Shown here in pieces: positions 8,046-29,178 of a DNA stretch of 64,000 bases; the stretch's first letter is position 1; every line of letters starts with the position of its first letter. The notes under the pieces are model-generated. The model saw only the letters and a program-made list of their open reading frames with translations, had not been told where the DNA came from and searched no databases. The stretch covers positions 1 to 64,000 of the forward strand of contig JBDRUV010000006.1 of NCBI GenBank assembly GCA_039801505.1, written 5' to 3'. The stretch is from a candidate division WOR-3 bacterium. Its GTDB lineage: Bacteria; Hydrothermota; Tepidihabitantia; Tepidihabitantales; CAIPLT01. The position numbers were made by a program, and so were the translations under genes.

Positions 8046-8053
8046 GGGGAGTA

Positions 8054-8302: not shown

Positions 8303-8305
8303 AAT

Positions 8306-9446: not shown

Positions 9447-9454
9447 AAAATTCT

Positions 9455-10906: not shown

Positions 10907-10981
10907 TTTGATTATCAGTAACATCAAATCAAAATTCTTTATAGCTTAAAATTGACTCTTCCTCACTTGCTTGTTAGATAC

Positions 10982-12754: not shown

Positions 12755-12767
12755 AAGCTTACCTATT

Positions 12768-12795
12768 ATATGCATATTTGCACATACAAGCATAT
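12768..12795. promoter_or_regulatory. Likely ArsR operator
   Basis: ATATGC at 12768 and GCATAT at 12790-12795 are the outer arms of an imperfect 28-bp dyad. It lies just downstream of the -10 box at the expected transcript start of the arsR operon, the usual ArsR-type position. Binding is inferred from position and symmetry only. Confidence 0.6.
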
Positions 12796-12822
12796 ATTAC
12801 CTCTAAAGATTAAACTTGTCAA
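12794..12822 (-). promoter_or_regulatory. Promoter of the arsR operon
   Basis: On the minus strand TTGACA (12822-12817) and TAATAT (12799-12794) are separated by 17 nt. This near-consensus promoter abuts the dyad at 12768-12795 and decides against the upstream ATG at 12793 as the arsR start. Confidence 0.8.
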
Positions 12823-12918
12823 GGGGAATTTTTATATGTATTGCTATGTTCGATAACTTCTATCTGCTTATTGACCCGTAATTGGAAAACAGCATTAGGG
12901 AAAGCTGGGCTTCAGTTT

Positions 12919-13959: not shown

Positions 13960-13980
13960 TTTTCAACCCGGATTATTTTA

Positions 13981-15567: not shown

Positions 15568-16821
15568 TTAGAGAGTAGCTTGGATTAATTTCCTGATTCT
15601 TGGCAAATTTTGTATAAACCAAAAAGCACTTAGTAGGGAAATGCCGCCGGCAATAATAACGGTAGTTGGAGCGCCTAGTCGATGCGCTAAACTACCAGCC
15701 AAAAGACTACCGAGGGGAGTAGTGCCCATAAAAGCTAGCATATAAAAGCTCATCACCCGACCGCGAATTTTGTCGTCAACAATTGTTTGCACTAAGGTAT
15801 TACTACAAGACATCTGCACCATCATACCCAGACCGGTAAAGACCATTAAAATCAATGACAAATAAAGGTTTTTTGAAAAAGCAAAGGCGATAAGACTTAG
15901 TCCCAAAACAATTGCCGCAACTGGGATGATATCTTCAAGTCCTCGGGCATTTTTTCGCTGTGCGACAATCCCCACTCCGAGTAGCGCACCTACCCCAACT
16001 GCACCCATAAGTATTCCTAGTGTTTTTGGCCCGCCCCCTAATACTTCTTTGGCAAATATGGGCATCAAGACCGCATAAGACATTCCCATAATACTAATAA
16101 TTCCTAGTAATAGAATAATTGCTCTTATGGGCATAAATCGAAAAGTGTAATTGAACCCCTCAGCTAAATCTTTAAGTAAATTAGGGCGTTCCGCTTTTAT
16201 AACCTTGTTTTGTAATTTCATGGCCAGCAACGCCCCGATGACTGCCAAATAAGAGATCGCGTTGATTAAAAAGCATGTGGCCTCGCCAAAGGCACTGATT
16301 AATACGCCAGCTAGAGTCGGACCAATCAGTCGTGCAATATTTACAATTGCCGAATTTAAGGCGATCGCGCTTATTAGATCATCTTTATTGAGAATCAGTT
16401 CAGGAACAAATGCCTGACGGGCCGGCATATCAAAGGCATTAACAATACCCAAAAAAAGACTCAAGGCTATTAGCTGCCAAATTTTAATTCTTGTTAACAC
16501 GACCAGTATCCATAAAACAAATGCCTGAAGCGCACTTAATATCTGGGCCCACAGTACAATCTGGTATCGAGAGCTTTTATCGACAATCACACCCGCGAAA
16601 GGCATCACGACGAGTAATGGCAGGGAACTTAAAAAACCTAAGAACCCTAAAAGAAAAGCTGAGTTGGTTAGGCGATAAATCAGCCAGCTCATGGCAATTC
16701 TCTGCATCCAGGTGCCGACTAGCGATACAGTCTGACCACTAAAATAAAGCCGATAATTATAATATCGAAAAGCCCGGAAGGTATTATTGAGATCGATGGC
16801 TGGCCGTTTAAAATTCAACAC
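15568..16821 (-). CDS. MFS transporter
   Basis: A 417-residue membrane protein with twelve hydrophobic segments and the MFS_3 (enterobactin exporter-like) pattern: F-R-A-F-R-Y-Y-N-Y-R-L-Y-F-S-G-Q-T-V-S-L at the N-terminus, M-Q-R-I-A-M-S-W-L-I-Y-R in helix 1-2, F-A-G-V-I-V-D-K (motif A) and D-M-P-A-R-Q-A-F-V-P-E-L. Relatives are drug or siderophore exporters; the substrate here is unknown. The GTG start shares its G with the stop codon of the upstream gene, so the two are translationally coupled. Confidence 0.9.
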   Translation of the reverse strand: MLNFKRPAIDLNNTFRAFRYYNYRLYFSGQTVSLVGTWMQRIAMSWLIYRLTNSAFLLGFLGFLSSLPLLVVMPFAGVIVDKSSRYQIVLWAQILSALQAFVLWILVVLTRIKIWQLIALSLFLGIVNAFDMPARQAFVPELILNKDDLISAIALNSAIVNIARLIGPTLAGVLISAFGEATCFLINAISYLAVIGALLAMKLQNKVIKAERPNLLKDLAEGFNYTFRFMPIRAIILLLGIISIMGMSYAVLMPIFAKEVLGGGPKTLGILMGAVGVGALLGVGIVAQRKNARGLEDIIPVAAIVLGLSLIAFAFSKNLYLSLILMVFTGLGMMVQMSCSNTLVQTIVDDKIRGRVMSFYMLAFMGTTPLGSLLAGSLAHRLGAPTTVIIAGGISLLSAFWFIQNLPRIRKLIQATL

Positions 16822-17396
16822 TAAAACTCGCGGGGTTTACAGATGATTTCTAAGATTTTAGTGTCAAAAAAGTGCCGACCATGGGCCGGGCGCAAGACAA
16901 TTGCGGTGTCAGCACCGCGTCCAGTACCAGCAATGGAAATGATCTCTTTGCCGTAGGGTATTAGGCCAGCATCTAAAGCCATAATTGCAATTTCGACACA
17001 AACCTTCATACCTTCACCAAAAGTGCGATAAGTATTAGCAACAATCTCCCCGGTATAAAGGCCGCCAAACTTGGCTCGAATCGCTCGAGCAAGGCCTGAA
17101 AAGAAGTGCGTGCCGCGATATACCTTGACGCCATGCTTTTCTAAATAAGCCTGAGTTTTAAATGAAAGTTCCACGGTACCAGCTTTTTCAAATCCGGCAT
17201 GATGGGAAACACAAACCACATTAAATCCTTTTAGATCAAATTTTATGAGCGCTAAGGCCGTCTCGCCGGTAGTGGACGCGACTACGAGGTTTTTAATCTT
17301 TAGTGTCCGTGCACGGTCTAAGGCTAATTTAAGGGTTTCTTGGGTATTTTGTTTTCCGGGCTTAGAAAAATAAGTAACTACTGTATTTTTTACCAT
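16821..17396 (-). CDS. Stand-alone pyruvate kinase alpha/beta-domain protein
   Basis: This 191-residue protein matches the C-terminal allosteric domain of pyruvate kinase and lacks the catalytic barrel. Recognisable parts are V-V-A-S-T-T-G-E-T-A, the V-V-C-V-S-H-H-A-G strand-turn, and a C-terminal segment I-S-I-A-G-T-G-R-G-A-D-T-A-I-V-L-R-P-A. Such free-standing domains are widespread in anaerobes and archaea, without an assigned activity. AAAGGAG precedes the ATG. Translational coupling to the MFS gene suggests a shared process, not identified. Confidence 0.85.
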   Translation of the reverse strand: MVKNTVVTYFSKPGKQNTQETLKLALDRARTLKIKNLVVASTTGETALALIKFDLKGFNVVCVSHHAGFEKAGTVELSFKTQAYLEKHGVKVYRGTHFFSGLARAIRAKFGGLYTGEIVANTYRTFGEGMKVCVEIAIMALDAGLIPYGKEIISIAGTGRGADTAIVLRPAHGRHFFDTKILEIICKPREF

Positions 17397-17624: not shown

Positions 17625-18662
17625 ATGGCGCTTTATTTCTTAAGCCGCTATCATTTAGCTAATTGGATTAAGAAATTACAATCGAAATCTCAAGTAATTC
17701 TGCCCCAGTACTTTGAAAACAAGTTGTATTACGAACGGCTTAATGGCCAAAATATTATCGAAGAGAAATTTTATCGGGCATTACAAAATATCAGACCAGC
17801 TAATCCCCTAAAAGAGTTCTTTTTTGTCCCGAAGCAAAAAGTTGCTGGTCTAATTGAAACCAAACCACTACCAGTTTCATTAGATGAGACACCCCGGGTT
17901 ATTATTGGCGTCAAAAACTGTGATCTTTTAGGTCTTAAGGTGCACGAAAAAATGTATTTAGAGAGCAATTATCCCGATCCGTTTTATCACCACGAACGGC
18001 AGCGTACCATAATCGTAGCGGCAGATTGTCCCCAGCCAGCCGAGACTTGCTTTTGTAATCTTTTGGGGCTAAAGCCGTATCCGGAGTCGCTTGCCGATAT
18101 TATTATCACACCTCTTACCGGAGGTTATTTATTAGAAGCCATAACCCGGGTTGGTGAAGAACTTATTATTAACACTGATCATAGTTTTCAAGCGGCGACC
18201 CAGGAAAATATTAATGAACGAACCGAAATTCGCCGGCACGCCCAAGAAAAACTGTCAAAAATTAATCAGACCCAGCTGGCTGATGATTTAAGTAGTGCGC
18301 TTCATCGTAAGACCCAAAGCGAATTCTGGCAAAACCACGCCCAGAGTTGTGTTGAATGTTTCGGTTGTCTTTTAGTGTGCCCAACTTGTTTTTGCTTCTT
18401 ATTATATGATGTGCCAGTTAACCCGGAAGGCTTCGAGCGCTATAAAATCTGGGACGCCTGTTATTATAATGCCTATGCCCGGGTTGGCGGCGGACTTAAC
18501 CCCCGAGCTGAGTTCTGGCAACGATTTCGCAACCGATTCCACTGTAAGTTTATGAATTTTTACTTAGAGCACAAATTCTATGCCTGTTCGGGTTGTGGTC
18601 GATGTTTTGCGGTTTGTATGGGTAAGATTGATATTCGGAAAATATTAAGCGAGGTCACATGA
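17625..18662 (+). CDS. 4Fe-4S electron-transfer subunit, sulfhydrogenase beta-like
   Basis: A 345-residue cytoplasmic protein of the HydB/sulfhydrogenase-beta type. The N-terminal half has I-I-G-V-K-N-C-D-L-L-G-L and A-A-D-C-P-Q-P-A-E-T-C-F-C, conserved in this family. The C-terminal half has two cluster motifs: C-V-E-C-F-G-C-L-L-V-C-P-T-C and C-S-G-C-G-R-C-F-A-V-C. In soluble hydrogenases it passes electrons between the flavin gamma subunit and the hydrogenase. Here it is the first gene of the membrane-hydrogenase operon and overlaps the gamma-like gene (ATGA), so it is probably an input/output arm of that complex. Confidence 0.85.
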   Translation: MALYFLSRYHLANWIKKLQSKSQVILPQYFENKLYYERLNGQNIIEEKFYRALQNIRPANPLKEFFFVPKQKVAGLIETKPLPVSLDETPRVIIGVKNCDLLGLKVHEKMYLESNYPDPFYHHERQRTIIVAADCPQPAETCFCNLLGLKPYPESLADIIITPLTGGYLLEAITRVGEELIINTDHSFQAATQENINERTEIRRHAQEKLSKINQTQLADDLSSALHRKTQSEFWQNHAQSCVECFGCLLVCPTCFCFLLYDVPVNPEGFERYKIWDACYYNAYARVGGGLNPRAEFWQRFRNRFHCKFMNFYLEHKFYACSGCGRCFAVCMGKIDIRKILSEVT

Positions 18663-19477
18663 AAAATCCTTTTCAACCGATACCAGCTAAAATTATAGAT
18701 ATCATTGAAGAAACGCCAACTATTCGCACTTTTGTTTTAGACTTGCTGGGAGCAGATTTTTCATTTGATGCCGGGCAATTTGTCTCGTTAACCGTGCCCA
18801 AAGTTGGCGAGGCGCCATTTACGCCTTCGTCTTCGCCTTATGTTAAAGAGACTATCGAGCTGACCATCATGAAGGTTGGCAAGGTAACCTCAAGTTTATT
18901 TGAACTTCCTGTTGGGTCTATTGTTGGTATCCGCGGTCCATTTGGCAAACGTTATCCGATCGAAGAATTTGCAGGTAAGGAGGTGTTAATTTTAGGCGGT
19001 GGTGTTGGATTAGCCCCCCTGCGTTCATTATTTTTAGCATTATCGGCTGACTTAAAAAAGTATAAAAAAATTTATATCAAATATGGTGCCCGAACACCTC
19101 AAGATATTGTATATAAAAAAGAACTTGCTAGTTGGAGGAGTTTAAAAGGGGTTGATGTCCAGCTCACCGTTGACAATGCCGATAAGAGTTGGCGCGGCAA
19201 AGTTGGGGTGGTTACAATTTTGCTTGACGACCCGAGATTGAACAATACTTCAGAGATGATTGCCGTGGTTTGCGGACCACCGATAATGATGAAATTTGGC
19301 ACCATTAAACTTTTAGAAAAAGGTTTTCAGGCTAAGAATATTTATCTTTCTATGGAGAAGAATATGTCCTGCGGCATTGGACAATGTGGTCATTGCCGAT
19401 GCGGTCCATATTTTGTGTGTAAAGATGGTCCGGTGTTGACTTGGGAACAAGTAAAAGATATTGAAGATCCGTTTTAG
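18659..19477 (+). CDS. FAD/NAD(P)H oxidoreductase subunit, sulfhydrogenase gamma-like
   Basis: A 272-residue ferredoxin-reductase-fold protein: a FAD-binding barrel with F-D-A-G-Q-F-V-S-L-T-V-P and a G-P-F-G-K-R-Y-P segment, a nucleotide-binding half starting L-I-L-G-G-G-V-G-L-A-P-L-R-S and V-V-C-G-P-P-I-M-M, and a C-terminal [2Fe-2S] site C-G-I-G-Q-C-G-H-C-R...C-K-D-G-P. This is the HydG/PyrK-like gamma subunit that exchanges electrons with NAD(P)H. Its place between the beta-like gene and the hydrogenase suggests that the complex couples H2 to NAD(P)(H). That coupling is inference. Confidence 0.88.
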   Translation: MKNPFQPIPAKIIDIIEETPTIRTFVLDLLGADFSFDAGQFVSLTVPKVGEAPFTPSSSPYVKETIELTIMKVGKVTSSLFELPVGSIVGIRGPFGKRYPIEEFAGKEVLILGGGVGLAPLRSLFLALSADLKKYKKIYIKYGARTPQDIVYKKELASWRSLKGVDVQLTVDNADKSWRGKVGVVTILLDDPRLNNTSEMIAVVCGPPIMMKFGTIKLLEKGFQAKNIYLSMEKNMSCGIGQCGHCRCGPYFVCKDGPVLTWEQVKDIEDPF

Positions 19478-19482
19478 AAACT

Positions 19483-21156
19483 ATGGAGCACGAAAAGATC
19501 TATCAAACAACTTGCCCTTTTTGTCTATACGGTTGCCAACTTAGTATTAAAGAGGTCAATAAGGCCTATTACCGAATAAGAACTTTAGAATATAACAGTA
19601 AGGCAGGTATTAATAATGGTCGACTTTGTGCTCGGGGTAATATGGCAGTAAGGGTGCTAGAATCGCCTCAACGTGCCGTTCGGCCGAAATTAAATGGCGA
19701 AAACACTAATTGGTCTTTGGCCCTTGAGACTATTAAACAGCAACTTAGTCAATTTAATCCCAACGAGATTGCGGTTACCTATGATATTAACAATACAAAC
19801 GAAGAAGTTGCTCTAATTTTTGGATTCTGCAAGAAAAATAAGATTAATAATCTCTCTTCAAGCTATTTAGAGCCCGAAGCAATCTTTCGATATCGGGTTT
19901 TTAGCGAAACGAAGTCGGTTGACTTTTCTGATCTTCAAGATAGTCAAGTATTTTTGATAATTGGGAATATTTTTGCTAAAACACCATTAATTGCTAAACC
20001 AATCCTAGACAGTAAATATAAAGACCGGAATCATCGGATCTATTATATTGATTCCATAAAAACCCGAGTTGCTGGTTTTGCTCATAAATTTCTTCAGCCT
20101 AAGGTAAATGCCGAACCTTTGGTACTTTTAGCGCTCATTGCTGAGGTGTGTTCTAAGATTCATAATAAAACAAAAATAATTTGTGAAAAGGATTATACAT
20201 TACTAAAAAAGCAGTTATCCCGAATTTATGAGATCACCCAGGTTGCCCCTCAGGATATCAAAGAAGTAGCCGAGGGTTTAACTAATTTAGATCGAGGGAC
20301 AATTATATTATCGTTAGATTATGCCAAAACCGAAGAACCGGTCTTAGTCTCAGGATTAGCACAAATATTAGCTGGTCTTTTAGATAAAAAGAAAATAGTT
20401 TTTCTTGCGCTAGCCTTACCACCTATTGGACAAATAAGCTTTGGAGAGCTTTTCAGAAAACTAAAAGCTGGGGAGATCAAGGCACTAATTAACTTTGGAG
20501 AAATCTTTCCTTACTATTATCCTCAAATCTTTATGGAATTAGAAAAGTTGCCACTAGTAGTTCATACCAGTCCTTTTCAGAATAAATCGTTTAACTCAGG
20601 TTGGGCCCTTCCAGTTCCTTCACTACTTGAAAAAAGCGGTTCAATTACTACCCTGTGGGGTGAAACTTCAATTAATCCAGTATCTTCACCGGTAAGCGGA
20701 GCCCGTAAAATTACCGATATTTTGGGATCAATTTCTGATGTTCAAGAAGTAAAATTATCAACCAGTGCTTTTGGTCGACTTAACCCAGACGAAATTTTTT
20801 ACAGTGCGTTAAATTATTTAGAAAGTTTTTCGGCAGATGACCAATTTACGGTTATCGGTGAAGAATCGGCTATAGGTTATCGGGGATATCTTGAACCTGA
20901 GGAGCAAATTTTATATATAAATCCGCAGACCGCTATAAGAAATCAAATTAGTAACTTTAATAGCGTCAAATTAAAGACCCCAGAATACGAAATATCGGTT
21001 CGGGTCAGCTATCGGGAGAGCATACCGAATAATGTCGGGTTAATACCTATAAACACACCTACAAACCGTGGGCTTTTCCCGATGAGTATTGACAATTTAA
21101 CCCAGGAAATTATAATAAAGCCCATAAAAGGATTGTTGTTAAAGAAAGATGACTAA
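19483..21156 (+). CDS. Degenerate molybdopterin-family / NuoG-like subunit
   Basis: A 557-residue protein with the N-terminal [4Fe-4S] site of the formate dehydrogenase/NuoG superfamily: C-P-F-C-L-Y-G-C then G-R-L-C-A-R-G-N-M. It continues into Rossmann-like molybdopterin-binding halves (I-N-F-G-E-I-F-P-Y; N-S-G-W-A-L-P-V-P) and a short C-terminal barrel. I find no Cys or selenocysteine (TGA) at the expected active-site position, and it is shorter than catalytic formate dehydrogenases. A structural, electron-wiring role like NuoG is more likely than catalysis. It lies 5 nt after the gamma-like gene. Confidence 0.72.
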   Translation: MEHEKIYQTTCPFCLYGCQLSIKEVNKAYYRIRTLEYNSKAGINNGRLCARGNMAVRVLESPQRAVRPKLNGENTNWSLALETIKQQLSQFNPNEIAVTYDINNTNEEVALIFGFCKKNKINNLSSSYLEPEAIFRYRVFSETKSVDFSDLQDSQVFLIIGNIFAKTPLIAKPILDSKYKDRNHRIYYIDSIKTRVAGFAHKFLQPKVNAEPLVLLALIAEVCSKIHNKTKIICEKDYTLLKKQLSRIYEITQVAPQDIKEVAEGLTNLDRGTIILSLDYAKTEEPVLVSGLAQILAGLLDKKKIVFLALALPPIGQISFGELFRKLKAGEIKALINFGEIFPYYYPQIFMELEKLPLVVHTSPFQNKSFNSGWALPVPSLLEKSGSITTLWGETSINPVSSPVSGARKITDILGSISDVQEVKLSTSAFGRLNPDEIFYSALNYLESFSADDQFTVIGEESAIGYRGYLEPEEQILYINPQTAIRNQISNFNSVKLKTPEYEISVRVSYRESIPNNVGLIPINTPTNRGLFPMSIDNLTQEIIIKPIKGLLLKKDD

Positions 21157-21616
21157 TCTGAAAAGAATTTTTTTAGATTTAGACTACTGTATCGGTTGTC
21201 GTTCGTGTGAAGCTGCATGTTATAGTAAGTTTGGTGAGAAACGCATCAGATATGGTGATCTTTCGCCTACGGTATTTTTACCCTTGGCATGTCGGCATTG
21301 TGAAGAACCTTTGTGTGCTAACGCTTGTCCATTTGAAGTGTTGAAGATCCATAAAGGTGGTTTAGTGCTTCAAGCTAGTTTTCACTGTATTGGTTGTCGG
21401 TCTTGTATTTTAGCATGTCCCTTTGGAGTTTTAGATAAAGAACTTTTATGGCACGTGTCTCAAAAATGTAATTTGTGTTATGACCGTAATGACATTCCTC
21501 GGTGTGTGGCTAGCTGTCCGACCGGTGCCCTGAAATTTATAACAGAAAAAGAGACTGAAAAGAAAATTGTAAGTCAAAGGTTTCTTGCACGGTCACCATA
21601 TTTTAGACGGCAATGA
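21149..21616 (+). CDS. Four-cluster ferredoxin-like subunit (HycB/CooF type)
   Basis: A 155-residue iron-sulfur protein with sixteen cysteines in four motifs: C-I-G-C-R-S-C-E-A-A-C, C-R-H-C-E-E-P-L-C-A-N-A-C-P, C-I-G-C-R-S-C-I-L-A-C-P and C-N-L-C...C-V-A-S-C-P-T-G-A. HycB/CooF/FdhB proteins of this design wire a dehydrogenase to a membrane hydrogenase. It overlaps the molybdopterin-family gene by 8 nt and the next membrane gene by 4 nt, which indicates tight coupling in one complex. Confidence 0.9.
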   Translation: MTNLKRIFLDLDYCIGCRSCEAACYSKFGEKRIRYGDLSPTVFLPLACRHCEEPLCANACPFEVLKIHKGGLVLQASFHCIGCRSCILACPFGVLDKELLWHVSQKCNLCYDRNDIPRCVASCPTGALKFITEKETEKKIVSQRFLARSPYFRRQ

Positions 21617-22533
21617 GTTGTTATCTAAAGCTTTTATTAGAATTCTTAATATTTCCAGGATTTACCTTTCTTGTAGTTAGTGGGCTTTTATTTTCTTGGT
21701 TAGAACGTAAGATTTCTGCGCGACTACAATGGCGTGTTGGACCACCTTGGTATCAAGGTTTTGCGGATATCTTAAAACTTTTAGGTAAAGAAACTATAAT
21801 TCCTCGTGGGCGAAAAATAATTTTTCTAATAGCACCAGTTATTTCAGTAATATCGGTGATTCTTATAAGCTTGCTTCTATACAATGCCAATTTTTACCCA
21901 CAATCTTCATTCTTAGGCGATGCAATCCTCTTGGTCTATCTATTAGCAATTCCAACCCTTATGACAATTCTTGGGGCTTCTTCATCTAAGAATCCCCTAA
22001 GTAGTGTTGGGGCATCGCGCGAGATGAGTTTATATTTTGCATATGAATTACCATTTGTGATTATTATGATACTTTGCATTATGAAACCCCATGGCACAAT
22101 CCGGCTTGCCGAGATTATTAATTATCAAAAATTTCATAGCCCGCATTTGTATTCAGTATCGGGAATATTGGCATTTATCATTAATATTTTTATCATGCAA
22201 GCGAAATTAGGTTATGTTCCTTTTGATATTGCCGAAGCTGAGCAAGAGATAATGGCCGGGGTTTATACCGAATATTCGGGTTTTCCTTTAGCGATGTTTA
22301 AACTTACCAAAAATATGTTACTTTTTGTTTTTCCCTTAGTAATTATTACATTACTATGGGGTGGATTAAATTCCTTTTCGACGATTTGGAAGTATGCTAT
22401 AATATTTATCATAACGGTAATACTAAAAAACACTAATCCCCGAGTGCGAATTGACCAAGCCCTGAAACTTTTCTGGTTAGGATTGACACCTGTAGCCATA
22501 ATTAGTTTAATATTGGGACTTAATAACTTATAA
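21613..22533 (+). CDS. Hydrogenase membrane anchor subunit (NuoH/MbhM-like)
   Basis: A 306-residue membrane protein with about eight hydrophobic segments. Family marks are the E-R-K-I-S-A-R-L-Q-W-R-V-G-P motif in the first cytoplasmic loop, A-S-R-E-M-S-L-Y-F-A-Y-E and the F-D-I-A-E-A-E-Q-E-I-M-A-G-V-Y-T-E-Y loop with its acidic residues. In complex I and group 4 hydrogenases this subunit docks the peripheral arm and begins the proton/ion path. Confidence 0.92.
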   Translation: MSCYLKLLLEFLIFPGFTFLVVSGLLFSWLERKISARLQWRVGPPWYQGFADILKLLGKETIIPRGRKIIFLIAPVISVISVILISLLLYNANFYPQSSFLGDAILLVYLLAIPTLMTILGASSSKNPLSSVGASREMSLYFAYELPFVIIMILCIMKPHGTIRLAEIINYQKFHSPHLYSVSGILAFIINIFIMQAKLGYVPFDIAEAEQEIMAGVYTEYSGFPLAMFKLTKNMLLFVFPLVIITLLWGGLNSFSTIWKYAIIFIITVILKNTNPRVRIDQALKLFWLGLTPVAIISLILGLNNL

Positions 22534-22544
22534 TTAATAAATAT

Positions 22545-22961
22545 ATGAAAGACTTAAGACTTTTGGGACTTAAAAAATCACCGTGGGTATTTCACGTTGC
22601 GGCGGCATCGTGTAATAATTGTGACATTGAAATTTTAGATGTATTAACTCCTCGTTTTGATGTTGAACGTTTCGGAATCGTGCTAGTTGGGTCACCGCGG
22701 CACGCCGATGCTTTGCTTGTGACCGGTGTCATTAACCGGAAAAGTCTGCCTCGGATCTTAAAAGTATACGAGGAAACTCCCAAACCTTGTTTGGTTATTG
22801 CAATTGGCACTTGTGCATGTGACACCCATATGTTTAAAAATTCGTATAATGTTGTCGGCCCCTATGATAAATATCTGCCGGTTGATGTGTATATCCCCGG
22901 TTGTCCACCCAAACCAGAAGCAATTATTTTAGGTATTGTAAAAGCACTACAAAAGTTATGA
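22545..22961 (+). CDS. [NiFe] hydrogenase small subunit (NuoB/MbhJ-like)
   Basis: A 138-residue protein that binds the proximal [4Fe-4S] cluster. Cluster residues are C23 and C26 in S-C-N-N-C-D-I-E, a cysteine in G-T-C-A-C-D (C89 or C91) and C119 in P-G-C-P-P-K-P-E. It lacks the long C-terminal part of uptake-hydrogenase small subunits, as is normal for group 4 enzymes. The stop codon overlaps the next start (ATGA). Confidence 0.93.
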   Translation: MKDLRLLGLKKSPWVFHVAAASCNNCDIEILDVLTPRFDVERFGIVLVGSPRHADALLVTGVINRKSLPRILKVYEETPKPCLVIAIGTCACDTHMFKNSYNVVGPYDKYLPVDVYIPGCPPKPEAIILGIVKALQKL

Positions 22962-23395
22962 ACCAATTAACCTTGGAATTACAAAACGAATTCAAAAAGC
23001 GATTTCCGTTTGCTGAGTTTTATATCCACAATGAGCGTCGATTCTATATCACAATTCCTAAAGATAAGTTAAAGGTTGTTGCTGAATTTTTACATAAAGA
23101 GAAAGGATTAAGGCTTTCCATCGCGACCGGAATCGATACGCGGGACGGTTTTGAGATTATTTACCATTTTTCCTATGACCGTACTGGAACTTATTTTAAC
23201 CTTAAAATCCTAATTTCTAAAGATGACCCTCAAGTTGATTCTTTAACCGATATTTTTCAAGCTTCTAATTGGATTGAACGAGAAATTCACGAGTTGTTAG
23301 GTATTAATTTTATTGGTCATCCAAATTTAAAACCACTTTTAACTTCCGAGGATTGGCCAAAAGATAAATATCCATTAACCCGAGATTATGAATAG
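22958..23395 (+). CDS. NuoC-like 30-kDa subunit (MbhK-like)
   Basis: The start is ATG 22958, overlapping the small-subunit stop; a longer upstream frame would overlap that gene by 60 nt. The 145-residue protein carries the signature W-I-E-R-E-I-H-E-L-L-G-I-N-F-I-G-H-P near its C-terminus, typical of NuoC/MbhK. It forms part of the peripheral arm beside the large subunit. It overlaps the large-subunit gene by 8 nt. Confidence 0.92.
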   Translation: MNQLTLELQNEFKKRFPFAEFYIHNERRFYITIPKDKLKVVAEFLHKEKGLRLSIATGIDTRDGFEIIYHFSYDRTGTYFNLKILISKDDPQVDSLTDIFQASNWIEREIHELLGINFIGHPNLKPLLTSEDWPKDKYPLTRDYE

Positions 23396-24566
23396 AAGAA
23401 TCATCCCAATCGGGCCATATCATCCACTTCAGGAAGAACCAGAGTTCTTTAAGCTTATCGTCGAAGGCGAAAAAGTTATCGACATCGAAATAAATATTGG
23501 TTATAATCACCGCGGTCATGAGTTTCTTTCGCCATCTCTAACCTACGACCAAATTCCATTTTTAGTAGAACGAATATGTGGTATTTGTTCTAATTCGCAT
23601 CCGTTAGCATTCGTTTTAGCTGTGGAGGATATGGCGCACATTAAAGTACCTGAACGGGCACTATATATAAGAACAATTATTCATGAATTAGAACGAATTC
23701 ATTCTCATCTTTTATGGTTAGGGCTTGCTGGACATTTTATTGGATATAATACGGTATGGATGTGGGCATGGCGATATCGGGAGCCGGTCTTAGATTTATT
23801 TGAAATGATTACTGGGAACCGTAATCATTATGCCATGAACAAAATCGGCGGTGTTCGGAGAGATATCGATCCCGGCCAAATCACCCAAATTGAGAAAGTG
23901 TTGAATTTTGTAGAAGAAAAAATAGCAATGCTAACTAAAGCTGTTCTTGATGATCCAGTGCTTCACGCTCGGTTAAAAAATGTGGGTGTATTACCAAAAG
24001 AAGCGGCAATTTCTTATGGTGTTGTTGGTCCGACCGCTAGAGCTTCAGGTGTGGTAATTGATGTAAGAAAAGACGATCCCCATTGTGCTTATGACAAAGT
24101 AGTTTGGGATGTCATAGTCGAAGAAGCTGGCGATATATTTGCCAAAGCCAAAGTAAGATTACTTGAGTGTTTTGAATCAATAAAAATTATTCGGCAATGC
24201 CTTAAAAATTTACCTGATACTCCGATCGAAACCCGAATTGAGGAATTGCCACCGGGTGAAGGAATCGGTCGAGCCGAAGCACCTCGTGGTGAAGTATTTC
24301 ATTATGTCCGGGGTGACGGTTCCCACCATCCAGTCCGCCATAAAGTAAGAGCGCCCAGTTATATGAATTTACCATCTAATGAAGTTACAGTGAAAGGATA
24401 TACCATTGCCGATGCCGCATTATGTTTAGCTGCAATTGATCCTTGCTACTGTTGTACAGAACGCGTTAGTGCCTTTGAGGACGGAAAGTTAAAATACACC
24501 TGGAACGACCTACTAATTTTATCGTGGAAGAAAACCGAAAAAATTAGAGCACGCTATAGAAAATGA
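23388..24566 (+). CDS. [NiFe] hydrogenase large subunit, group 4 (MbhL-like)
   Basis: The catalytic subunit, 392 residues. Both nickel-binding motifs are intact: E-R-I-C-G-I-C-S-N-S-H (C64, C67) and I-D-P-C-Y-C-C-T-E-R (C353, C356). Intact CxxC pairs separate it from NuoD of complex I, which has lost them. About 35 residues follow the last motif, as in Mbh-type subunits. It reduces protons or oxidises H2 on the cytoplasmic side. A nickel-insertion gene, hypA, lies at 36775; no other maturation genes are in the window. Confidence 0.96.
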   Translation: MNRRIIPIGPYHPLQEEPEFFKLIVEGEKVIDIEINIGYNHRGHEFLSPSLTYDQIPFLVERICGICSNSHPLAFVLAVEDMAHIKVPERALYIRTIIHELERIHSHLLWLGLAGHFIGYNTVWMWAWRYREPVLDLFEMITGNRNHYAMNKIGGVRRDIDPGQITQIEKVLNFVEEKIAMLTKAVLDDPVLHARLKNVGVLPKEAAISYGVVGPTARASGVVIDVRKDDPHCAYDKVVWDVIVEEAGDIFAKAKVRLLECFESIKIIRQCLKNLPDTPIETRIEELPPGEGIGRAEAPRGEVFHYVRGDGSHHPVRHKVRAPSYMNLPSNEVTVKGYTIADAALCLAAIDPCYCCTERVSAFEDGKLKYTWNDLLILSWKKTEKIRARYRK

Positions 24567-26149
24567 TGCGAATATCATTAGTTGTTGTGTCTCCAGTACT
24601 AGGGATTTTTAGTTATTTAATTCCAAGGCTTCGCAACGAATTTTGTTTTTTGGCATCAGTTTTATCCTTGTATTTTTCACTTTTGATATTTAATGCCACT
24701 CGGCAGGCATTAACTTTTAATAAAGTCCTTTGGACCTTAGGAAATTATGAATATGGTTTATATGCTGATCATCTTACCGCAGTTATGTTAACTCTTTTGT
24801 CCTTATCAATTTTCGCCTCAATTATTTATTCGTTTCGCTATATGCGAGGATATAAAAATTCGGGACTGTTTTATTTTTATACCCTATTAATATTGGCATT
24901 TGGTAATGCTCTACTTACTGCTAATTCTATATTAAGCGCTAGTGTGATAGCTTTTATCGTCAGTATTCTTGGACATCTGCTTTCAGCGACGACTGCCGAG
25001 AAAGAAGTGAAAGGTTTTCGAAATTATTCTTTCCTGTTAATTGAACTGTTTTTTATTTTGGGAATCTTAATTCTTAAATGGGAAAATTTTACTTTTAATT
25101 TTGCTTTTCTGCCGATAAATGGCACGCTTAATTTTAAAATCATTGTTGGATTAATTTTAATTTTCGTGAGCATTTTAGCGCGGCTGGGGTTTTATCCATT
25201 TAATAAGTGGTTTATCATAACTTCAAATGGTTTTACTCTTTTAGGCTATCTTATTTTTATAACTATTACTCAAAAAATTTTGGGGTTTTATTTCCTATTG
25301 AGAATTGGTTGTTTTATTTTTGCTCAGGAACATTTTCTTTGGCTTCGGATTGGACTTGTAATACTTGGTGTTGTTAATATCATTTTAATGGGTTACAGAC
25401 TATGGTACACTAAGCAGGTAAATCAAGTACTATTTACAACCGAGGCTATTCAAATGGGATTTGTTGTTTTAGCCCTCACTGGATTAAACAGTAATACATT
25501 GGCTGGAGGAGTGTTGTTGTTTATTTATTATTTACTATCACAAACGAGCATAATTTATACACTAGGATCAATAACATATTGGACAAAATCCGAAAAAATC
25601 AATGATTTTATTGGACTTGCTGAAAGAATGCCTTTAACTTTTATATTGCTGACACTAGCAGTATTTCTTATCATAGGTATTCCCCCACTTGGTAGTTTTG
25701 GAGCAAAGTGGCTTATGCTTCAAGGACTATTTTCTTTTACCAATGGTATTGATATACGTAGTATATTACATTTAGTTGGCATGTTAGGGATATTAATTGG
25801 GAATATTTTAATGGCAGGATATTTTATAAAATTTTTAAGAAAAATTCTAGAGCCATTAATCGATGAGTTTCCTAAAGCTTGGGAATTAGGATTTACTGCC
25901 TGGATTTCACCGCTAATGTTATTAGCAATAGCTTTGTTTTTTGGGACATTTGCTAATAATTCGATGATTAAATTAGTTATGGATCCACTCTTACGAACAA
26001 CTGTTTTTGGTTTTATTGAAGATTCATCAAGAGTAAAATTCGAGCCTTCAAATAACTTTTTTCCGACAATGATTATTTTATCAATCATCTTGGGGTATTT
26101 TTTACAGAAAAAGTACCCTAAGCAAATTATTATGAACAGCAAATGTTAG
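24563..26149 (+). CDS. Antiporter-like proton/ion channel subunit (MrpD/NuoN, MbhH-like)
   Basis: A 528-residue protein with about fourteen hydrophobic segments. It has the proton-conducting core of the NuoL/M/N-MrpA/D family, including the segment N-Q-V-L-F-T-T-E-A-I-Q-M-G-F-V-V and the loop around I-G-I-P-P-L-G-S-F-G-A-K-W. It would translocate H+ or Na+ in step with hydrogen turnover. It overlaps both neighbours by 4-7 nt. Confidence 0.9.
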   Translation: MMRISLVVVSPVLGIFSYLIPRLRNEFCFLASVLSLYFSLLIFNATRQALTFNKVLWTLGNYEYGLYADHLTAVMLTLLSLSIFASIIYSFRYMRGYKNSGLFYFYTLLILAFGNALLTANSILSASVIAFIVSILGHLLSATTAEKEVKGFRNYSFLLIELFFILGILILKWENFTFNFAFLPINGTLNFKIIVGLILIFVSILARLGFYPFNKWFIITSNGFTLLGYLIFITITQKILGFYFLLRIGCFIFAQEHFLWLRIGLVILGVVNIILMGYRLWYTKQVNQVLFTTEAIQMGFVVLALTGLNSNTLAGGVLLFIYYLLSQTSIIYTLGSITYWTKSEKINDFIGLAERMPLTFILLTLAVFLIIGIPPLGSFGAKWLMLQGLFSFTNGIDIRSILHLVGMLGILIGNILMAGYFIKFLRKILEPLIDEFPKAWELGFTAWISPLMLLAIALFFGTFANNSMIKLVMDPLLRTTVFGFIEDSSRVKFEPSNNFFPTMIILSIILGYFLQKKYPKQIIMNSKC

Positions 26150-26673
26150 AATTATATCTTTTAATCATTGCTATGCTTGCAGCAGCCGTGGTTGCCGTCG
26201 AAATAAAAGATTTATTGGCTTCAGCAGTTGCAATGGGTATTGTGGGGTTTTCAGTGGCGATTATGTTTATCTTAGTTCAAGCACCGGATTTAGCTATAGT
26301 TCAGATTGTTGTGGAAATTTTGACCGTGGTATTCTTTGCGGCAACAATTCTTAGAACGACCCATACTGACGAAACAATTGGTAAGGGACTCAAAACTGAG
26401 TCAATTTTCCCATCTATTACGTATTTTATCTTTGCGACACTATTTGCTGTATTGGTTAGTTATGCATTACGAGAGCTACCCCCATTTGGAGCTCCAATCA
26501 TGAAAATTGCTAGTTACTATGTTCATAATGGCCTTAGAGATACGGGAGCGGCAAATATTGTTGCCGCTATTATTTTAGATTACCGAGGTTATGATACTTT
26601 TGGAGAAGCGGTAGTGCTGTTTACCTCAGTAATAGGGGTATTAACAATATTAAGGAGTACAGGTCGAAAATGA
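26143..26673 (+). CDS. Fused MbhD/MbhE-like (MrpA C-terminal) membrane subunit
   Basis: A 176-residue membrane protein. The first half is the DUF4040/MbhD domain (I-K-D-L-L-A-S-A-V-A-M-G, V-Q-A-P-D-L-A-I-V-Q-I-V-V-E). The second half matches MbhE (R-D-T-G-A-A-N-I-V-A-A-I-I-L-D-Y-R-G-Y-D-T-F-G-E). In Pyrococcus these are separate genes; in Mrp antiporters they are the C-terminal end of MrpA. Here they form one polypeptide. Confidence 0.88.
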   Translation: MLELYLLIIAMLAAAVVAVEIKDLLASAVAMGIVGFSVAIMFILVQAPDLAIVQIVVEILTVVFFAATILRTTHTDETIGKGLKTESIFPSITYFIFATLFAVLVSYALRELPPFGAPIMKIASYYVHNGLRDTGAANIVAAIILDYRGYDTFGEAVVLFTSVIGVLTILRSTGRK

Positions 26674-27104
26674 AGGGCATGAGTGTTATTGTTAAAACAA
26701 TTGCAGCATTAATTGCTGGATTTATTTTTCTTTATGGGTTTTATATTATCTTCCACGGTCATTTGACACCTGGTGGTGGTTTTGCTGGAGGGGTAATAAT
26801 TGCTGGTTCGTTTATTTTATTAGTTTTAGCATTCGGCGCCGATGAAGTAAAAGAACGAAGTTCTTACACCTTCTCATCGGTTTTTGAAAGCATCGGTGGT
26901 CTTTTATTTCTACTTATAGCATTATTGGGCATATTTGCCGGCTCAAATTTCTTTACGAATATACTTTCAAAAGGAGTGCCACTTAAAATTTTAAGTGCCG
27001 GTACTATCCCTTTAGCTAATATCGCAATTGGCATAAAAGTAGGTGCGGGATTATTAAGCATATTCATTGCTTTAGCTGCAATGCATTTTATAATGAAGGA
27101 GTAA
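26670..27104 (+). CDS. MrpB/MnhB-like subunit (MbhF)
   Basis: A 144-residue protein with four membrane segments and the MnhB signature G-F-Y-I-I-F-H-G-H-L-T-P-G-G-G-F-A-G-G. It belongs to the Na+/H+ antiporter half of the complex. It overlaps the previous gene by 4 nt (ATGA). Confidence 0.93.
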   Translation: MKGMSVIVKTIAALIAGFIFLYGFYIIFHGHLTPGGGFAGGVIIAGSFILLVLAFGADEVKERSSYTFSSVFESIGGLLFLLIALLGIFAGSNFFTNILSKGVPLKILSAGTIPLANIAIGIKVGAGLLSIFIALAAMHFIMKE

Positions 27105-27111
27105 AACACTG

Positions 27112-27450
27112 ATGATGCTATTTTTAGGATGTGTTCTATTGATATTGATTGGACTTTATGCTGTTGTGACCAAGAGAAATATAATCAAAATCGCTATTGG
27201 ATTTTGTATGGTTGAATATGGCGTAAATTTACTTTTTGCTTTTATTGGATTTAAGAAAGATGCCTTAGCACCAATTATTACAAAAATCGACGCTACACAT
27301 AATTTTGTTGATCCGATCCCTCAGGCCTTAGTGCTTACAGCTATCGTTATTGGTTTAGGCACGACTGCGGTGATGTTAGCATTAATTATCAGATTGTATC
27401 AAAAATATCATACTTTGGATATTAGTGAAATTAAAAAACTAAAAGGCTAA
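27112..27450 (+). CDS. MrpC/MnhC-like subunit (MbhG, NuoK-like)
   Basis: A 112-residue protein with three membrane helices. It has the MrpC/NuoK features G-F-C-M-V-E-Y-G-V-N-L-L-F and V-D-P-I-P-Q-A-L-V-L-T-A-I-V-I-G. It is part of the ion-translocating module. AAGGAG at 27097-27102 precedes the start. Confidence 0.93.
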   Translation: MMLFLGCVLLILIGLYAVVTKRNIIKIAIGFCMVEYGVNLLFAFIGFKKDALAPIITKIDATHNFVDPIPQALVLTAIVIGLGTTAVMLALIIRLYQKYHTLDISEIKKLKG

Positions 27451-27457
27451 AATTTTT

Positions 27458-27949
27458 ATGTTGGGACGACGTTTGGCTTATTTCATTGGCTGTATTGTTT
27501 TATGGCTAATTTTAACTTTGACTAGGTATTCTCCATCCGTAATTTTAGGAATAATTCTTGCCCTCGGGGTGACATTAATTTTTGGGAAATATTTCAGCTA
27601 TCAACCATTAAAACTTCTACATCCTAAAAGATTTTTCTGGCTTTTAGTTTATATTCCAGTTTTTGCATGGTATTGTCTTAAGGCTAATTTAGATGTTGCC
27701 TATCGGGTTATTCATCCAGAAAAGCCTTTAAAGCCCGGAATTGTAAAAATTAAGACCCGTCTTAAGACTGATTTGGCTCGGACATTGCTTGCCAATTCTA
27801 TTACCATGACGCCGGGTACCATGTCGGTCGATATTGATGGCGATATTCTTTATATTCACTGGATTTGGGTTCGGGATCTTGATGTAGAAAAAGCAACTCG
27901 GGATATTGCCGGACCATTTGAAAAATATCTTATGAGAATATTTGAATAG
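27458..27949 (+). CDS. MrpE/MnhE-like subunit (MbhA)
   Basis: A 163-residue protein with two or three N-terminal membrane helices and a cytoplasmic domain bearing the MnhE signature L-L-A-N-S-I-T-M-T-P-G-T-M-S-V-D-I-D-G-D-I-L-Y-I-H. In Pyrococcus Mbh the equivalent gene is first in the operon; here it is near the end. Confidence 0.93.
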   Translation: MLGRRLAYFIGCIVLWLILTLTRYSPSVILGIILALGVTLIFGKYFSYQPLKLLHPKRFFWLLVYIPVFAWYCLKANLDVAYRVIHPEKPLKPGIVKIKTRLKTDLARTLLANSITMTPGTMSVDIDGDILYIHWIWVRDLDVEKATRDIAGPFEKYLMRIFE

Positions 27950-27957
27950 GAGCTGAT

Positions 27958-28212
27958 ATGGAAGTGTTAATTGTTTTATTGTCTTTAGGGGCATTTTTCT
28001 GCCTCTATCGAGCCTTAAAGGGTCCGAGTATTTCTGATCGGGTAATTTCCGTAGATATCATGGCAATAATTTTTACTTGCATAACTGGACTTATGGCGCT
28101 GCGTTACGATATTAGTTTTCTTATGGATTTAGCAATTGTGATTGCCATTTTAAGCTTTGTGGGGACTTTAGCATTAGCAAAATATTTAGAGGGGCGTAGT
28201 TTAGATGATTAG
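27958..28212 (+). CDS. MrpF/MnhF-like subunit (MbhB)
   Basis: An 84-residue protein with three membrane helices and the R-A-L-K-G-P-S-I-S-D-R-V-I-S-V-D signature of MrpF. AGGAG lies 5 nt before the ATG. It overlaps mrpG-like by 8 nt. Confidence 0.93.
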   Translation: MEVLIVLLSLGAFFCLYRALKGPSISDRVISVDIMAIIFTCITGLMALRYDISFLMDLAIVIAILSFVGTLALAKYLEGRSLDD

Positions 28213-28573
28213 CATTCTTGGTTGGATATTTATTATGATCGGAGTAATTTTTGACCTTTTGGGGTGTTTGGGTTTGGTTCGATTTCCTGATCTTTATAAC
28301 CGCATGCAAGCAGCGACAAAAGGCGTGACTTTAGGAACCTGTGGGTTAATGTTGGGCATATTTTTACTTAAAGGTTTTACTCCCATGGGTATTAAAGCGC
28401 TTCTTTGCGCCTTTTTTATTCTTTTGACTATGCCGGTGGCTGCTCATGCCCTTGCTCGAGGGTCATTACGATTTGGGGTTAAAATGTGGCCTAAGACAAT
28501 TATTGATTCGTATGGCAAAGACAAGTTTAATGAGGAGTTAATTGAAAAAGATACTAAACCGGAAGAGCCATGA
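28205..28573 (+). CDS. MrpG/MnhG-like subunit (MbhC)
   Basis: A 122-residue protein with three membrane helices and the MnhG signature G-L-V-R-F-P-D-L-Y-N-R-M-Q-A-A-T-K. The hydrophilic C-terminal tail ends in an acidic stretch. It overlaps the last gene of the operon by 4 nt. Confidence 0.93.
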   Translation: MISILGWIFIMIGVIFDLLGCLGLVRFPDLYNRMQAATKGVTLGTCGLMLGIFLLKGFTPMGIKALLCAFFILLTMPVAAHALARGSLRFGVKMWPKTIIDSYGKDKFNEELIEKDTKPEEP

Positions 28574-29178
28574 GAAAACCCAAATTACGAGAATTAGGTG
28601 AAGCAATTCGGGCTCTATTTAAGGGACCATATACTCTAAAATTTCCAAAAGTGCCATCGATACCGCCGCAAGGATTTCGGGGCGTTATTGTCTTTAATCA
28701 AGAAAAATGTATCGGCTGTGGTGCCTGTGTTGAAGTTTGTCCCGCCAATGCCCGAGCGATTCAAGACGATCTTGAGCAAAAAGTTCGAAAAGTTATTCAC
28801 TATCAAGAACGGTGTATCTATTGTGGGCAGTGTGTCAACTATTGTCCGACTCAAGAAGGTATAAAACATACCCAAGAGTATGATTTAGCCCGGCTTACTA
28901 AGGATGGTTATACCAATATAATTGAAAAAGAACTGGTACTTTGCGAACTTTGCGGTAATGTTGTGGCTCCCAAGGCTCAGCTTCTTTGGATTGCCCGTAA
29001 GCTTGGAGAGTTAGCATTTGCCAATCCAACATTGTTCTTAACAGTTTACTATAGCCGAACCGCGGCGGGTTTTCCTTTAGAAGATTTGCGCAATACGCCA
29101 TATCGTGCCGAACATCAACGAATTTTGTGTCCGGATTGTCGCAGAAAAGTGTATCTTAATGAAGTTTGGGGTTATTAA
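28570..29178 (+). CDS. Two-cluster ferredoxin subunit (NuoI/MbhN-like)
   Basis: A 202-residue peripheral-arm subunit with two [4Fe-4S] motifs: C-I-G-C-G-A-C-V-E-V-C-P and C-I-Y-C-G-Q-C-V-N-Y-C-P. It carries electrons between the outer partners and the small subunit. A C-terminal extension has a further C-E-L-C and C-P-D-C pair, which looks like a zinc or extra metal site and is seen in EchF/NuoI relatives of hydrogenases. It closes the operon begun at 17625. Confidence 0.92.
   Translation: MRKPKLRELGEAIRALFKGPYTLKFPKVPSIPPQGFRGVIVFNQEKCIGCGACVEVCPANARAIQDDLEQKVRKVIHYQERCIYCGQCVNYCPTQEGIKHTQEYDLARLTKDGYTNIIEKELVLCELCGNVVAPKAQLLWIARKLGELAFANPTLFLTVYYSRTAAGFPLEDLRNTPYRAEHQRILCPDCRRKVYLNEVWGY

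What the first reader, a model, noticed from the sequence alone, without database searches (positions are those of the whole stretch)
17625..29178. Composite Mbh-type hydrogenase with sulfhydrogenase beta/gamma, NuoG-like and HycB-like input modules
Sixteen overlapping or closely spaced genes encode all parts of an Mrp-linked group 4 [NiFe] hydrogenase except a recognisable MbhI, in the order M-J-K-L-H-(D+E fused)-F-G-A-B-C-N, unlike Pyrococcus. Upstream in the same operon are HydB-like and HydG-like subunits (NAD(P)H side), a molybdopterin-family protein without a visible catalytic residue and a 16-Cys ferredoxin. The combined set could let one membrane complex link H2, ferredoxin and NAD(P)H to Na+/H+ pumping, close to a hydrogenase version of complex I. 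I know no characterised complex with exactly this set.
Basis: partly seen in the sequence, partly recalled or inferred. Interest (0 to 1): 0.7.

Follow-up and report, generated by a model that had tools for sequence, protein, structure and literature searches.

The report
Composite membrane hydrogenase gene cluster
A 16-gene operon from an uncultured WOR-3 bacterium encodes a membrane hydrogenase joined to an NAD(P)H-oxidising module and to a formate dehydrogenase-like subunit that has lost its catalytic residue; the same layout recurs in many uncultured phyla, was noticed once in print but never tested, and may be a hydrogen-making parallel to respiratory complex I.

Summary
In detail: 16 same-strand genes (gaps of at most 11 bp) at 17625-29178 encode a group 4 [NiFe] hydrogenase with all four Ni-binding cysteines, Mrp-type subunits, HydB/HydG-like diaphorase subunits, a molybdopterin-fold protein and a 16-Cys ferredoxin. 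The reading needs correcting. (1) The electron arm is formate-hydrogenlyase-like, not Pyrococcus-Mbh-like: HycB-like ferredoxin, HycF-like N with its extra CxxC...CPxC site, and an FdhF-like protein whose catalytic Cys/Sec-His is Pro-Glu. It is a dead FDH by descent and NuoG-like only by analogy. (2) HydB-HydG are old, co-inherited members: upstream of the large subunit in 45 and 46 of 48 testable named loci across many phyla. The dead-FDH gene is nearly confined to WOR-3. (3) The in-operon 'MbhH' is a degenerate NuoL/MrpA-like protein; two intact antiporter-like proteins lie elsewhere in the genome. Best reading: an NAD(P)H- and probably ferredoxin-linked, reversible, ion-translocating hydrogenase in which the dead FDH is scaffold or relay. 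The gene set is in print as an 'enigmatic' Saganbacteria hydrogenase (PMC6349859) and the clade as Mrp-linked group 4g. I found no assay. New variant of a known kind.

The parts
17625..18662 (+). hydB: HydB/ShyB/AsrA-like beta subunit, three [4Fe-4S] cysteine sets
   Evidence: Fer4_22 E=5.5e-24; ShyB 165.9 bits, below the equivalog cut-off of 690; SHI beta 9nez_B E=5e-39; 15 Cys columns conserved in 60 of 60 rows
18659..19477 (+). hydG: HydG/AsrB-like FAD/NAD(P) subunit with [2Fe-2S] site
   Evidence: NAD_binding_1, DHODB_Fe-S_bind, FAD_binding_6; SHI gamma 9nez_C E=3.6e-48; cluster Cys conserved in 60 of 60 rows
19483..21156 (+). mopB: FDH-fold protein, [4Fe-4S] kept, catalytic Cys/Sec-His replaced by Pro131-Glu132
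   Evidence: model pLDDT 91.2; best fold matches FDH/Nap Z about 29, NuoG Z 23 to 25.5
21149..21616 (+). fer4: HycB-like ferredoxin, 16 Cys, four [4Fe-4S]
21613..22533 (+). MbhM/HycD/NuoH-like membrane subunit
   Evidence: PF00146 E=6.1e-64
22545..22961 (+). MbhJ/HycG/NuoB-like small subunit
   Evidence: PF01058 E=1.1e-29
22958..23395 (+). MbhK/NuoC-like subunit (start corrected from 22901)
   Evidence: PF00329 E=1e-28; ATG at 22958
23388..24566 (+). MbhL/HycE/NuoD-like [NiFe] large subunit, all four Ni-ligand Cys
   Evidence: PF00346 E=1.4e-70, PF00374 E=2.2e-14; C64, C67, C353, C356 invariant in 14 of 14 rows
24563..26149 (+). degenerate NuoL/MrpA-like antiporter subunit (not MbhH/MrpD)
   Evidence: PF00361 weak, 50 bits; tree; lost lysines
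26143..26673 (+). MbhD+MbhE fusion (MrpA C-terminal part)
   Evidence: PF13244 and PF20501
26670..27104 (+). MbhF / MrpB-like
   Evidence: PF04039 E=1.6e-28
27112..27450 (+). MbhG / MrpC / NuoK-like
   Evidence: PF00420 E=1.8e-25
27458..27949 (+). MbhA / MrpE-like
   Evidence: PF01899 E=3.1e-43
27958..28212 (+). MbhB / MrpF-like
   Evidence: PF04066 E=3.9e-15
28205..28573 (+). MbhC / MrpG-like
   Evidence: PF03334 E=2.8e-23
28570..29178 (+). MbhN/HycF-like 2x[4Fe-4S] protein with HycF-type CELC...CPDC tail

Best explanation
The operon encodes one membrane complex: a formate-hydrogenlyase-type peripheral arm whose formate dehydrogenase has died, re-fed by a sulfhydrogenase-type NAD(P)H module, on an Mrp/complex-I-like membrane part. 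Proposed path: NAD(P)H -> FAD -> [2Fe-2S] (HydG) -> three [4Fe-4S] (HydB) -> four [4Fe-4S] (HycB-like ferredoxin) -> two [4Fe-4S] (HycF-like N) -> one [4Fe-4S] (J) -> [NiFe] (L) -> H2, coupled through M to ion movement. The dead FDH clamps HydB and the ferredoxin onto N, and its single cluster is a side or on-path relay. Reduced ferredoxin probably also enters at the HycB/HydB clusters. The reaction should be reversible: H2 formation from ferredoxin plus NAD(P)H at low H2, or NAD(P)H formation from H2. SHOWN: subunit families, cofactor ligands, loss of the catalytic residue, conserved order and co-inheritance. INFERRED: complex formation, electron path, direction, pumping. In this organism pumping may need the two antiporter-like proteins encoded at G000:C1:768-4205.
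For: NiFe ligands intact. HydB and HydG keep their cofactor cysteines in 60 of 60 rows and co-vary with L (Mantel r 0.820 and 0.837, n=59, 0 of 2000 permutations as high). hydB in 45 and hydG in 46 of 48 testable named loci. Across 147 WOR-3-phylum genomes L and mopB co-occur: 67 both, 8 L only, 3 mopB only, 69 neither (from rows). None of the 20 short mopB rows printed has the FDH Cys; P131 and E132 are at least 90% conserved in 27 rows. N carries the HycF-type CxxC...CxxC tail in 54 of 61 rows, the other 7 being short ORFs; in E. coli FHL that site faces FdhF (PMC9474812, passages). The ferredoxin keeps its first cluster in 25 of 25 named loci with dead mopB but 30 of 38 without. Precedent: Elp-Hdr uses a catalytically dead FdhA homologue beside a flavin/Fe-S subunit (PMC12350162, passages), and hydB and mopB both match its chains.
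Against: No interface was modelled or measured. In G136-G138 hydB-hydG are unlinked from mopB-fer4-J and K-L-N. Most non-WOR-3 relatives do without mopB; family f37 and G135 in the same phylum set lack it. The window's in-operon antiporter subunit has lost conserved lysines, so coupling in this species is uncertain. NAD(P)H to H2 is uphill except at low H2 (recalled). HydG's preference for NADH or NADPH cannot be read from sequence here.
Confidence: 0.55

Rival explanations
1. Ferredoxin-only Mrp-linked hydrogenase (the usual reading of group 4g); HydBG form a separate soluble NAD(P)H:ferredoxin or sulfur enzyme that is merely co-transcribed.
For: Published annotations call group 4g ferredoxin-dependent (PMC8542988 and PMC11257099, passages). 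AsrB is the best-scoring NCBIfam name for HydG. hydB-hydG are unlinked in G136-G138.
Against: hydB-hydG sit directly before mopB/fer4 in nearly all testable loci and co-vary with L. No sulfite reductase catalytic subunit lies in the operon. The genome has a separate sulfhydrogenase with its own HydBG-like pair.
Confidence: 0.25
2. Active Mrp-linked formate hydrogenlyase: mopB is an FDH with an unusual ligand, and HydBG add NADP-linked formate oxidation.
For: FDH fold with Z about 29; FHL-like arm; full-length FDH-like genes with the catalytic Cys precede the same operon in L115 and L116.
Against: Catalytic Cys replaced by Pro and His by Glu; the segment around the FDH residues [21 protein letters not shown] is missing; PMC6349859 could not classify its counterpart as FDH.
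Confidence: 0.07
3. Flavin-based confurcation: ferredoxin and NAD(P)H are oxidised together at the HydG flavin to make H2.
For: Both NAD(P)H and ferredoxin-type sites are present; a MopB-fold domain occurs in the bifurcating Nfn-ABC (fold match 9bov).
Against: HydG belongs to the SHI-gamma/PyrK-type family; no second flavin subunit is encoded in the operon.
Confidence: 0.08
4. In this lineage the complex no longer pumps: the operon carries only a degenerate antiporter-like subunit and runs as a redox valve.
For: Conserved lysines lost in 4 of 4 family-f1 proteins checked; G094 keeps only L-H-N downstream.
Against: Intact antiporter-like pair at the fabD-like locus, conserved in G000, G096 and G097; Mrp-type genes D/E, F, G, A, B, C retained in the window.
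Confidence: 0.2

Closest known systems
Saganbacteria RX5A 'enigmatic' group 4 hydrogenase (PMC6349859; passages read)
   Same: Group 4 large subunit, Mrp subunits, unclassifiable molybdopterin protein, cooF, asrA, asrB in one region; nearest kin said to be in Zixibacteria and Omnitrophica
   Different: Described only in outline, interpreted as Mbh-like; no analysis of catalytic residues, FHL-type arm, antiporter degeneration or distribution in WOR-3 in the passages read
HydDB group 4g, Mrp-linked (PMC8542988; passages read)
   Same: Saelkia tenebricola MAG 3300035698_749, called group 4g Mrp-linked there, is L101 here: 67% identical large subunit in the same 36-row clade, same operon order
   Different: 4g is annotated as ferredoxin-dependent; HydBG are not mentioned in the passages read; L101 has no mopB
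E. coli formate hydrogenlyase FHL-1 (PMC9474812; passages and section 8 read)
   Same: FdhF-fold protein, HycB-type 4-cluster ferredoxin, HycF with CxxC...CPxC, HycG, HycE; NuoH-like anchor
   Different: FDH dead here; HydBG added; Mrp-type set; HycE's two parts are separate genes K and L; E. coli FHL has one antiporter-like subunit
Thermococcus onnurineus fdh2 cluster (abstract and passages of PMC8965080; architecture otherwise recalled)
   Same: FDH + membrane hydrogenase + cation/proton antiporter genes
   Different: Active FDH; no HydBG known to me in that cluster
Pyrococcus furiosus Mbh (6cfw) and sulfhydrogenase I (9nez)
   Same: Mrp-linked NiFe core; beta/gamma diaphorase subunits, respectively
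   Different: Mbh: gene order and MbhI (recalled), 139-aa N chain. SHI: soluble, group 3b (recalled)
Elp-Hdr complex of Methanothermobacter marburgensis (PMC12350162; passages)
   Same: Dead FdhA homologue beside a flavin/Fe-S electron-input subunit
   Different: Feeds heterodisulfide reductase from F420H2; ElpA is truncated (about 340 aa)

Membership tests
Group 4 [NiFe] hydrogenase | Large subunit with L1 CxxC and L2 DPCxxC Ni ligands, NuoD-like | tested here: met
   C64, C67, C353, C356 invariant in 14 of 14 rows
Group 4 [NiFe] hydrogenase | Small subunit NuoB-like and NuoH-like anchor | tested here: met
Pyrococcus-type Mbh (4d) | Large subunit groups with P. furiosus MbhL | tested here: inconclusive
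   window lies in a separate 36-row clade (100/99); P. furiosus MbhL is a single long branch outside it; too few references
Pyrococcus-type Mbh (4d) | MbhI present and Pyrococcus gene order (recalled) | tested here: not met
   no MbhI-like ORF found; order M-J-K-L-H-DE-F-G-A-B-C-N
HydDB group 4g | Assignment by the HydDB classifier | not testable with these tools
   Indirect: L101 (Saelkia tenebricola, called 4g in PMC8542988) is in the same clade
Formate hydrogenlyase | HycB-like four-cluster ferredoxin and HycF-like subunit with extra CxxC...CPxC | tested here: met
Formate hydrogenlyase | FDH with catalytic Cys/Sec and His | tested here: not met
   Pro131-Glu132 at that position; both at least 90% conserved in 27 rows
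Complex I NuoG | N-terminal Fe-S domain before the MopB domain | tested here: not met
   protein starts at the MopB [4Fe-4S] domain; NuoG profile matched only from position 215
Complex I NuoG | Nearer NuoG than FDH in sequence and fold | tested here: not met
   Fdh-alpha 65 bits, NuoG 46.5; FDH Z about 29, NuoG Z 23 to 25.5
Sulfhydrogenase beta/gamma (HydB, HydG) | Cofactor cysteines and flavin/NAD(P) domains | tested here: met
Sulfhydrogenase beta/gamma (HydB, HydG) | NCBIfam equivalog cut-offs | tested here: not met
   ShyB 165.9 of 690, HydB 145.8 of 750, ShyC 172.8 of 600, HydG 169.8 of 650
Mrp antiporter | All of MrpA to MrpG in the operon | tested here: not met
   No MrpD-like gene in the operon and the MrpA-N-like gene is degenerate; intact H3- and H2-type genes at G000:C1:768-4205

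The most novel reading that the evidence does not exclude
A proton-reducing parallel of complex I: an ion-translocating NAD(P)H:H+ oxidoreductase that, independently of complex I, recruited a formate dehydrogenase subunit, killed its active site, kept it as an electron-arm scaffold, and replaced the flavin input with a sulfhydrogenase-type diaphorase; widespread in uncultured bacterial phyla and never assayed.
Probability: 0.35. Interest if true: 0.75.

Novelty: new variant of a known kind. Interest (0 to 1): 0.5.

Why it matters
NuoG of complex I contains a dead molybdenum-enzyme domain whose presence is usually explained by descent from an FDH-like input module. A hydrogenase clade in which an FDH-like subunit is absent (most relatives), apparently active (upstream in two Clostridia-type loci) or dead (WOR-3) makes that step comparable and testable. 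It would also change how Mrp-linked group 4g hydrogenases are annotated: not ferredoxin-only but NAD(P)H-linked, which alters metabolic reconstructions of WOR-3, Omnitrophota, Elusimicrobiota and others.

Tried and rejected
Soluble version: in G136-G138 the first synteny scan suggested loss of the membrane arm. Whole-genome searches and the fetched stretches showed M, antiporter-like and Mrp-type genes elsewhere in the genomes, so this is operon break-up; rejected.

'Antiporter genes simply moved': the orphan H3-H2 pair at G000:C1:768-4205 also occurs in G102, which keeps a complete operon, and the tree does not put it with the operon copies of WOR-3. So relocation is not shown; complementation in trans is only possible.

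NuoG homology: rejected as first choice because FDH profiles and folds score higher; the lists do not exclude other MopB families.

Large-subunit class by tree: only a few references could be had (PDB chains, three plasmid-collection records), so subgroup 4d versus 4g was not decided by tree; the Azospirillum and Butyrivibrio rows are long branches that meet. Plasmid-collection searches gave no near relative. Promoter and terminator scan near chance (41 found, 38.8 expected; 13 found, 10.1 expected). Papers: WOR-3 and Stahlbacteria hydrogenase searches and the WOR-3 survey PMC12542636 (passages) mention Mvh, Hdr, Rnf and sulfhydrogenase but, in what I saw, not this operon; the asrA/asrB search gave only PMC6349859 and a Salmonella expression study. 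Not run: a second structure job, any co-folding.

Caveats on counts: loci and overlap (same genomes), so they are counted apart. Presence thresholds were chosen after seeing the rows, which were typed, and related genomes are not independent. In one search, 48 of 80 named loci and 29 of 40 phylum regions had at least 6.5 kb upstream of L; the exceptions were L063, L090, L097 and L114 (L097 is the same contig as L063; in L090 the upstream genes lie elsewhere on the same chromosome record, real or misassembled; L114 has a hydG fragment). The 23 mopB of that call (named loci) include any match over 60 bits, FDH-like ones too.
Full report
Observation. The window carries sixteen + strand genes from 17625 to 29178, each overlapping the next or at most 11 bp away, between - strand neighbours (a pyruvate-kinase C-terminal-domain protein and a cysteine synthase-like gene). 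The listed NuoC-like ORF starts at 22901 (TTG), but an ATG at 22958 overlaps the stop of the NuoB-like gene. Profile scans give the assignments in 'parts'. The large subunit keeps both cysteine pairs that bind Ni-Fe, invariant in 14 aligned rows. The genome is 1.94 Mb in 57 contigs. Its nearest named relative for the large subunit is a candidate division WOR-3 MAG at 90% identity.

Is it one unit? I looked at 40 stretches from 36 genomes of the same phylum and at 80 named loci found with a 14-sequence large-subunit alignment. In WOR-3 the usual order is hydB-hydG-mopB-fer4-M-J-K-L-H1-H2-DE-F-G-H3-A-B-C-N. In Omnitrophota, Elusimicrobia, Latescibacterota, Clostridia-named and other MAGs it is mostly the same without mopB and H1. 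Among named loci with at least 6.5 kb upstream of L (48 of 80), hydB is present in 45, hydG in 46, fer4 in 47, M in 47. Among phylum regions (29 of 40 testable) hydB and hydG are each in 28. HydG and HydB distances follow L distances (Mantel r 0.837 and 0.820, n=59, 0 of 2000 permutations as high). Shared ancestry inflates such values, but they fit long co-inheritance better than recent shuffling. From the rows, 67 of 147 genomes have both close L and mopB, 8 L only, 3 mopB only, 69 neither; for hydB 70, 5, 6 and 66. In G136, G137 and G138 the operon is broken into pieces (G136: mopB-fer4-J-K-L-N, and hydB-hydG about 7 kb on; G137 and G138: mopB-fer4-J, K-L-N and hydB-hydG on separate contigs). 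Whole-genome searches found NuoH-like and antiporter-like genes in all three, and the fetched stretches of G136 and G138 hold M-, H- and Mrp-type genes. That is operon break-up, not loss.

The molybdopterin-fold protein. Its four [4Fe-4S] cysteines are kept (Cys11, 14, 49 invariant; Cys18 at least 90%). Where two full-length FDH-like proteins encoded upstream of the same operon in L115 and L116 have the catalytic Cys-His, the window has Pro131-Glu132 in a conserved Y-x-E-P-E stretch, and a segment of the FDH active-site region is missing. AlphaFold2 with the 27-row alignment gave a confident model (mean pLDDT 91.2, pTM 0.92). VIA-align puts FDHs and periplasmic nitrate reductases first (Z about 29, 530-540 residues, rmsd about 2.8), complex I NuoG lower (Z 25.5 with rmsd 3.3 over 455 residues for 4hea_3; 23.2 for 7p61_G), and the dead FDH-like ElpA (8rvu_D) at Z 25.3 over 327 residues. 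Sequence profiles agree: Fdh-alpha 65 bits, NuoG 46.5. I read it as a formate dehydrogenase subunit that lost catalysis, a parallel to NuoG rather than NuoG itself. Whether it still binds a pterin was not tested.

The electron arm. The ferredoxin is HycB-like (16 Cys). The last gene product has two [4Fe-4S] motifs plus a CxxC...CxxC tail seen in 54 of 61 rows, the other 7 being short ORFs (my count of the printed rows, some of which are the same genome fetched twice). E. coli HycF has such a site (CxxC-x34-CPxC) facing FdhF (PMC9474812, passages). So the arm is FHL-like. Among named loci with a usable ferredoxin, its first cluster is kept in 25 of 25 with dead mopB and 30 of 38 without, which fits that end serving mopB or the input side; relatedness is not controlled. 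HydB has three [4Fe-4S] cysteine sets and HydG a [2Fe-2S] set, all 60 of 60, and both match P. furiosus sulfhydrogenase I best among solved structures.

The membrane arm. A tree of 89 antiporter-like proteins separates three groups: H1 (after L), H2 (NuoL/MrpA-N-like, before DE) and H3 (MrpD-like, after G) (the names NuoL, MrpA and MrpD rest on gene position and recalled Mrp order). The window protein 24563-26149 falls, on a very long branch, with family members inside H2, and has lost residues conserved in H2 and H3. In the alignment column where 28 of 28 H2 and 26 of 26 H3 have Lys it has Asn, and where 26 of 28 H2 and 26 of 26 H3 have Lys it has Gln; the three other family members checked have lost Lys at both places too. 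The same genome has an intact H3-H2 pair beside fabD-like and smpB-like genes at C1:768-4205 (those two names are from reading the sequence, not a search), conserved in G096 and G097. G102 has both this pair and a full operon, so relocation is not proven. H2 proteins have a C-terminal extension that the window protein lacks; it may stand in for MbhI (inference).

Genome setting. The genome encodes Rnf subunits, five pyruvate/2-oxoacid:ferredoxin oxidoreductase gamma domains, a sulfhydrogenase-type and a Vhu-type [NiFe] hydrogenase and no [FeFe] hydrogenase match. An amino-acid or sugar fermenter with much ferredoxin is likely (inference).

Mechanism. I favour a reversible NAD(P)H- and ferredoxin-linked hydrogenase on an ion-translocating membrane part (0.55). 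Electron path, complex formation and direction are inferred. The strongest precedent for a dead FDH subunit in a flavin-fed Fe-S arm is Elp-Hdr (PMC12350162, passages). The strongest rival is the usual ferredoxin-only reading of group 4g (0.25).

What is known. PMC6349859 (passages) describes in Saganbacteria RX5A the same set: Mrp-linked group 4 hydrogenase, unclassifiable molybdopterin protein, cooF, asrA, asrB. L124 here is a Saganbacteria MAG with that order. PMC8542988 (passages) calls Saelkia's hydrogenase group 4g, Mrp-linked; that MAG is L101, in the same clade. PMC11257099 (passages) calls group 4g uncharacterised. So the kind is known in outline. The catalytic death of the FDH, the FHL-like arm, the spread of HydBG and the antiporter degeneration in this family are what I add, within the searches.

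Noticed in passing
L163 (G138:C1) 5020-14617; also L162 (G094:C71), L164 (G067:C29), partly L165 (G117:C2): A second complex in WOR-3 relatives, with no counterpart seen in the window's genome: three antiporter-like subunits, NuoJ-, NuoK- and NuoA-like genes (NuoA match weak, NuoK by reading), then NuoB, C, D, H, I-like genes: an 11-gene complex-I-like set whose NuoD-like subunit keeps all four Ni-Fe cysteines (RICGIC, DPCICC). Its large subunit forms a 100/99 clade apart from the window's. Possible missing link between group 4 hydrogenases and complex I.
   Followed up: partly
L115 and L116 (about 360-2630), L108 (1275-3542): Full-length FDH-like genes upstream of the same hydrogenase operon in Clostridia-named or related MAGs; the two aligned (L115, L116) have the catalytic Cys-His, suggesting formate-linked cousins of the dead-FDH form.
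   Followed up: partly
L154 (G000:C1) 768-4205: Orphan pair of antiporter-like genes (509 and 636 aa) between fabD-like and smpB-like genes, conserved in family members.
   Followed up: partly
L036 (G094) and L052 (G067): Shortened or rearranged membrane parts: L-H-N without Mrp-type genes in L036; L-H-N-H-H in L052.
   Followed up: no
window 16821-17396: Stand-alone pyruvate kinase C-terminal domain protein (PF02887) divergent from the operon.
   Followed up: no
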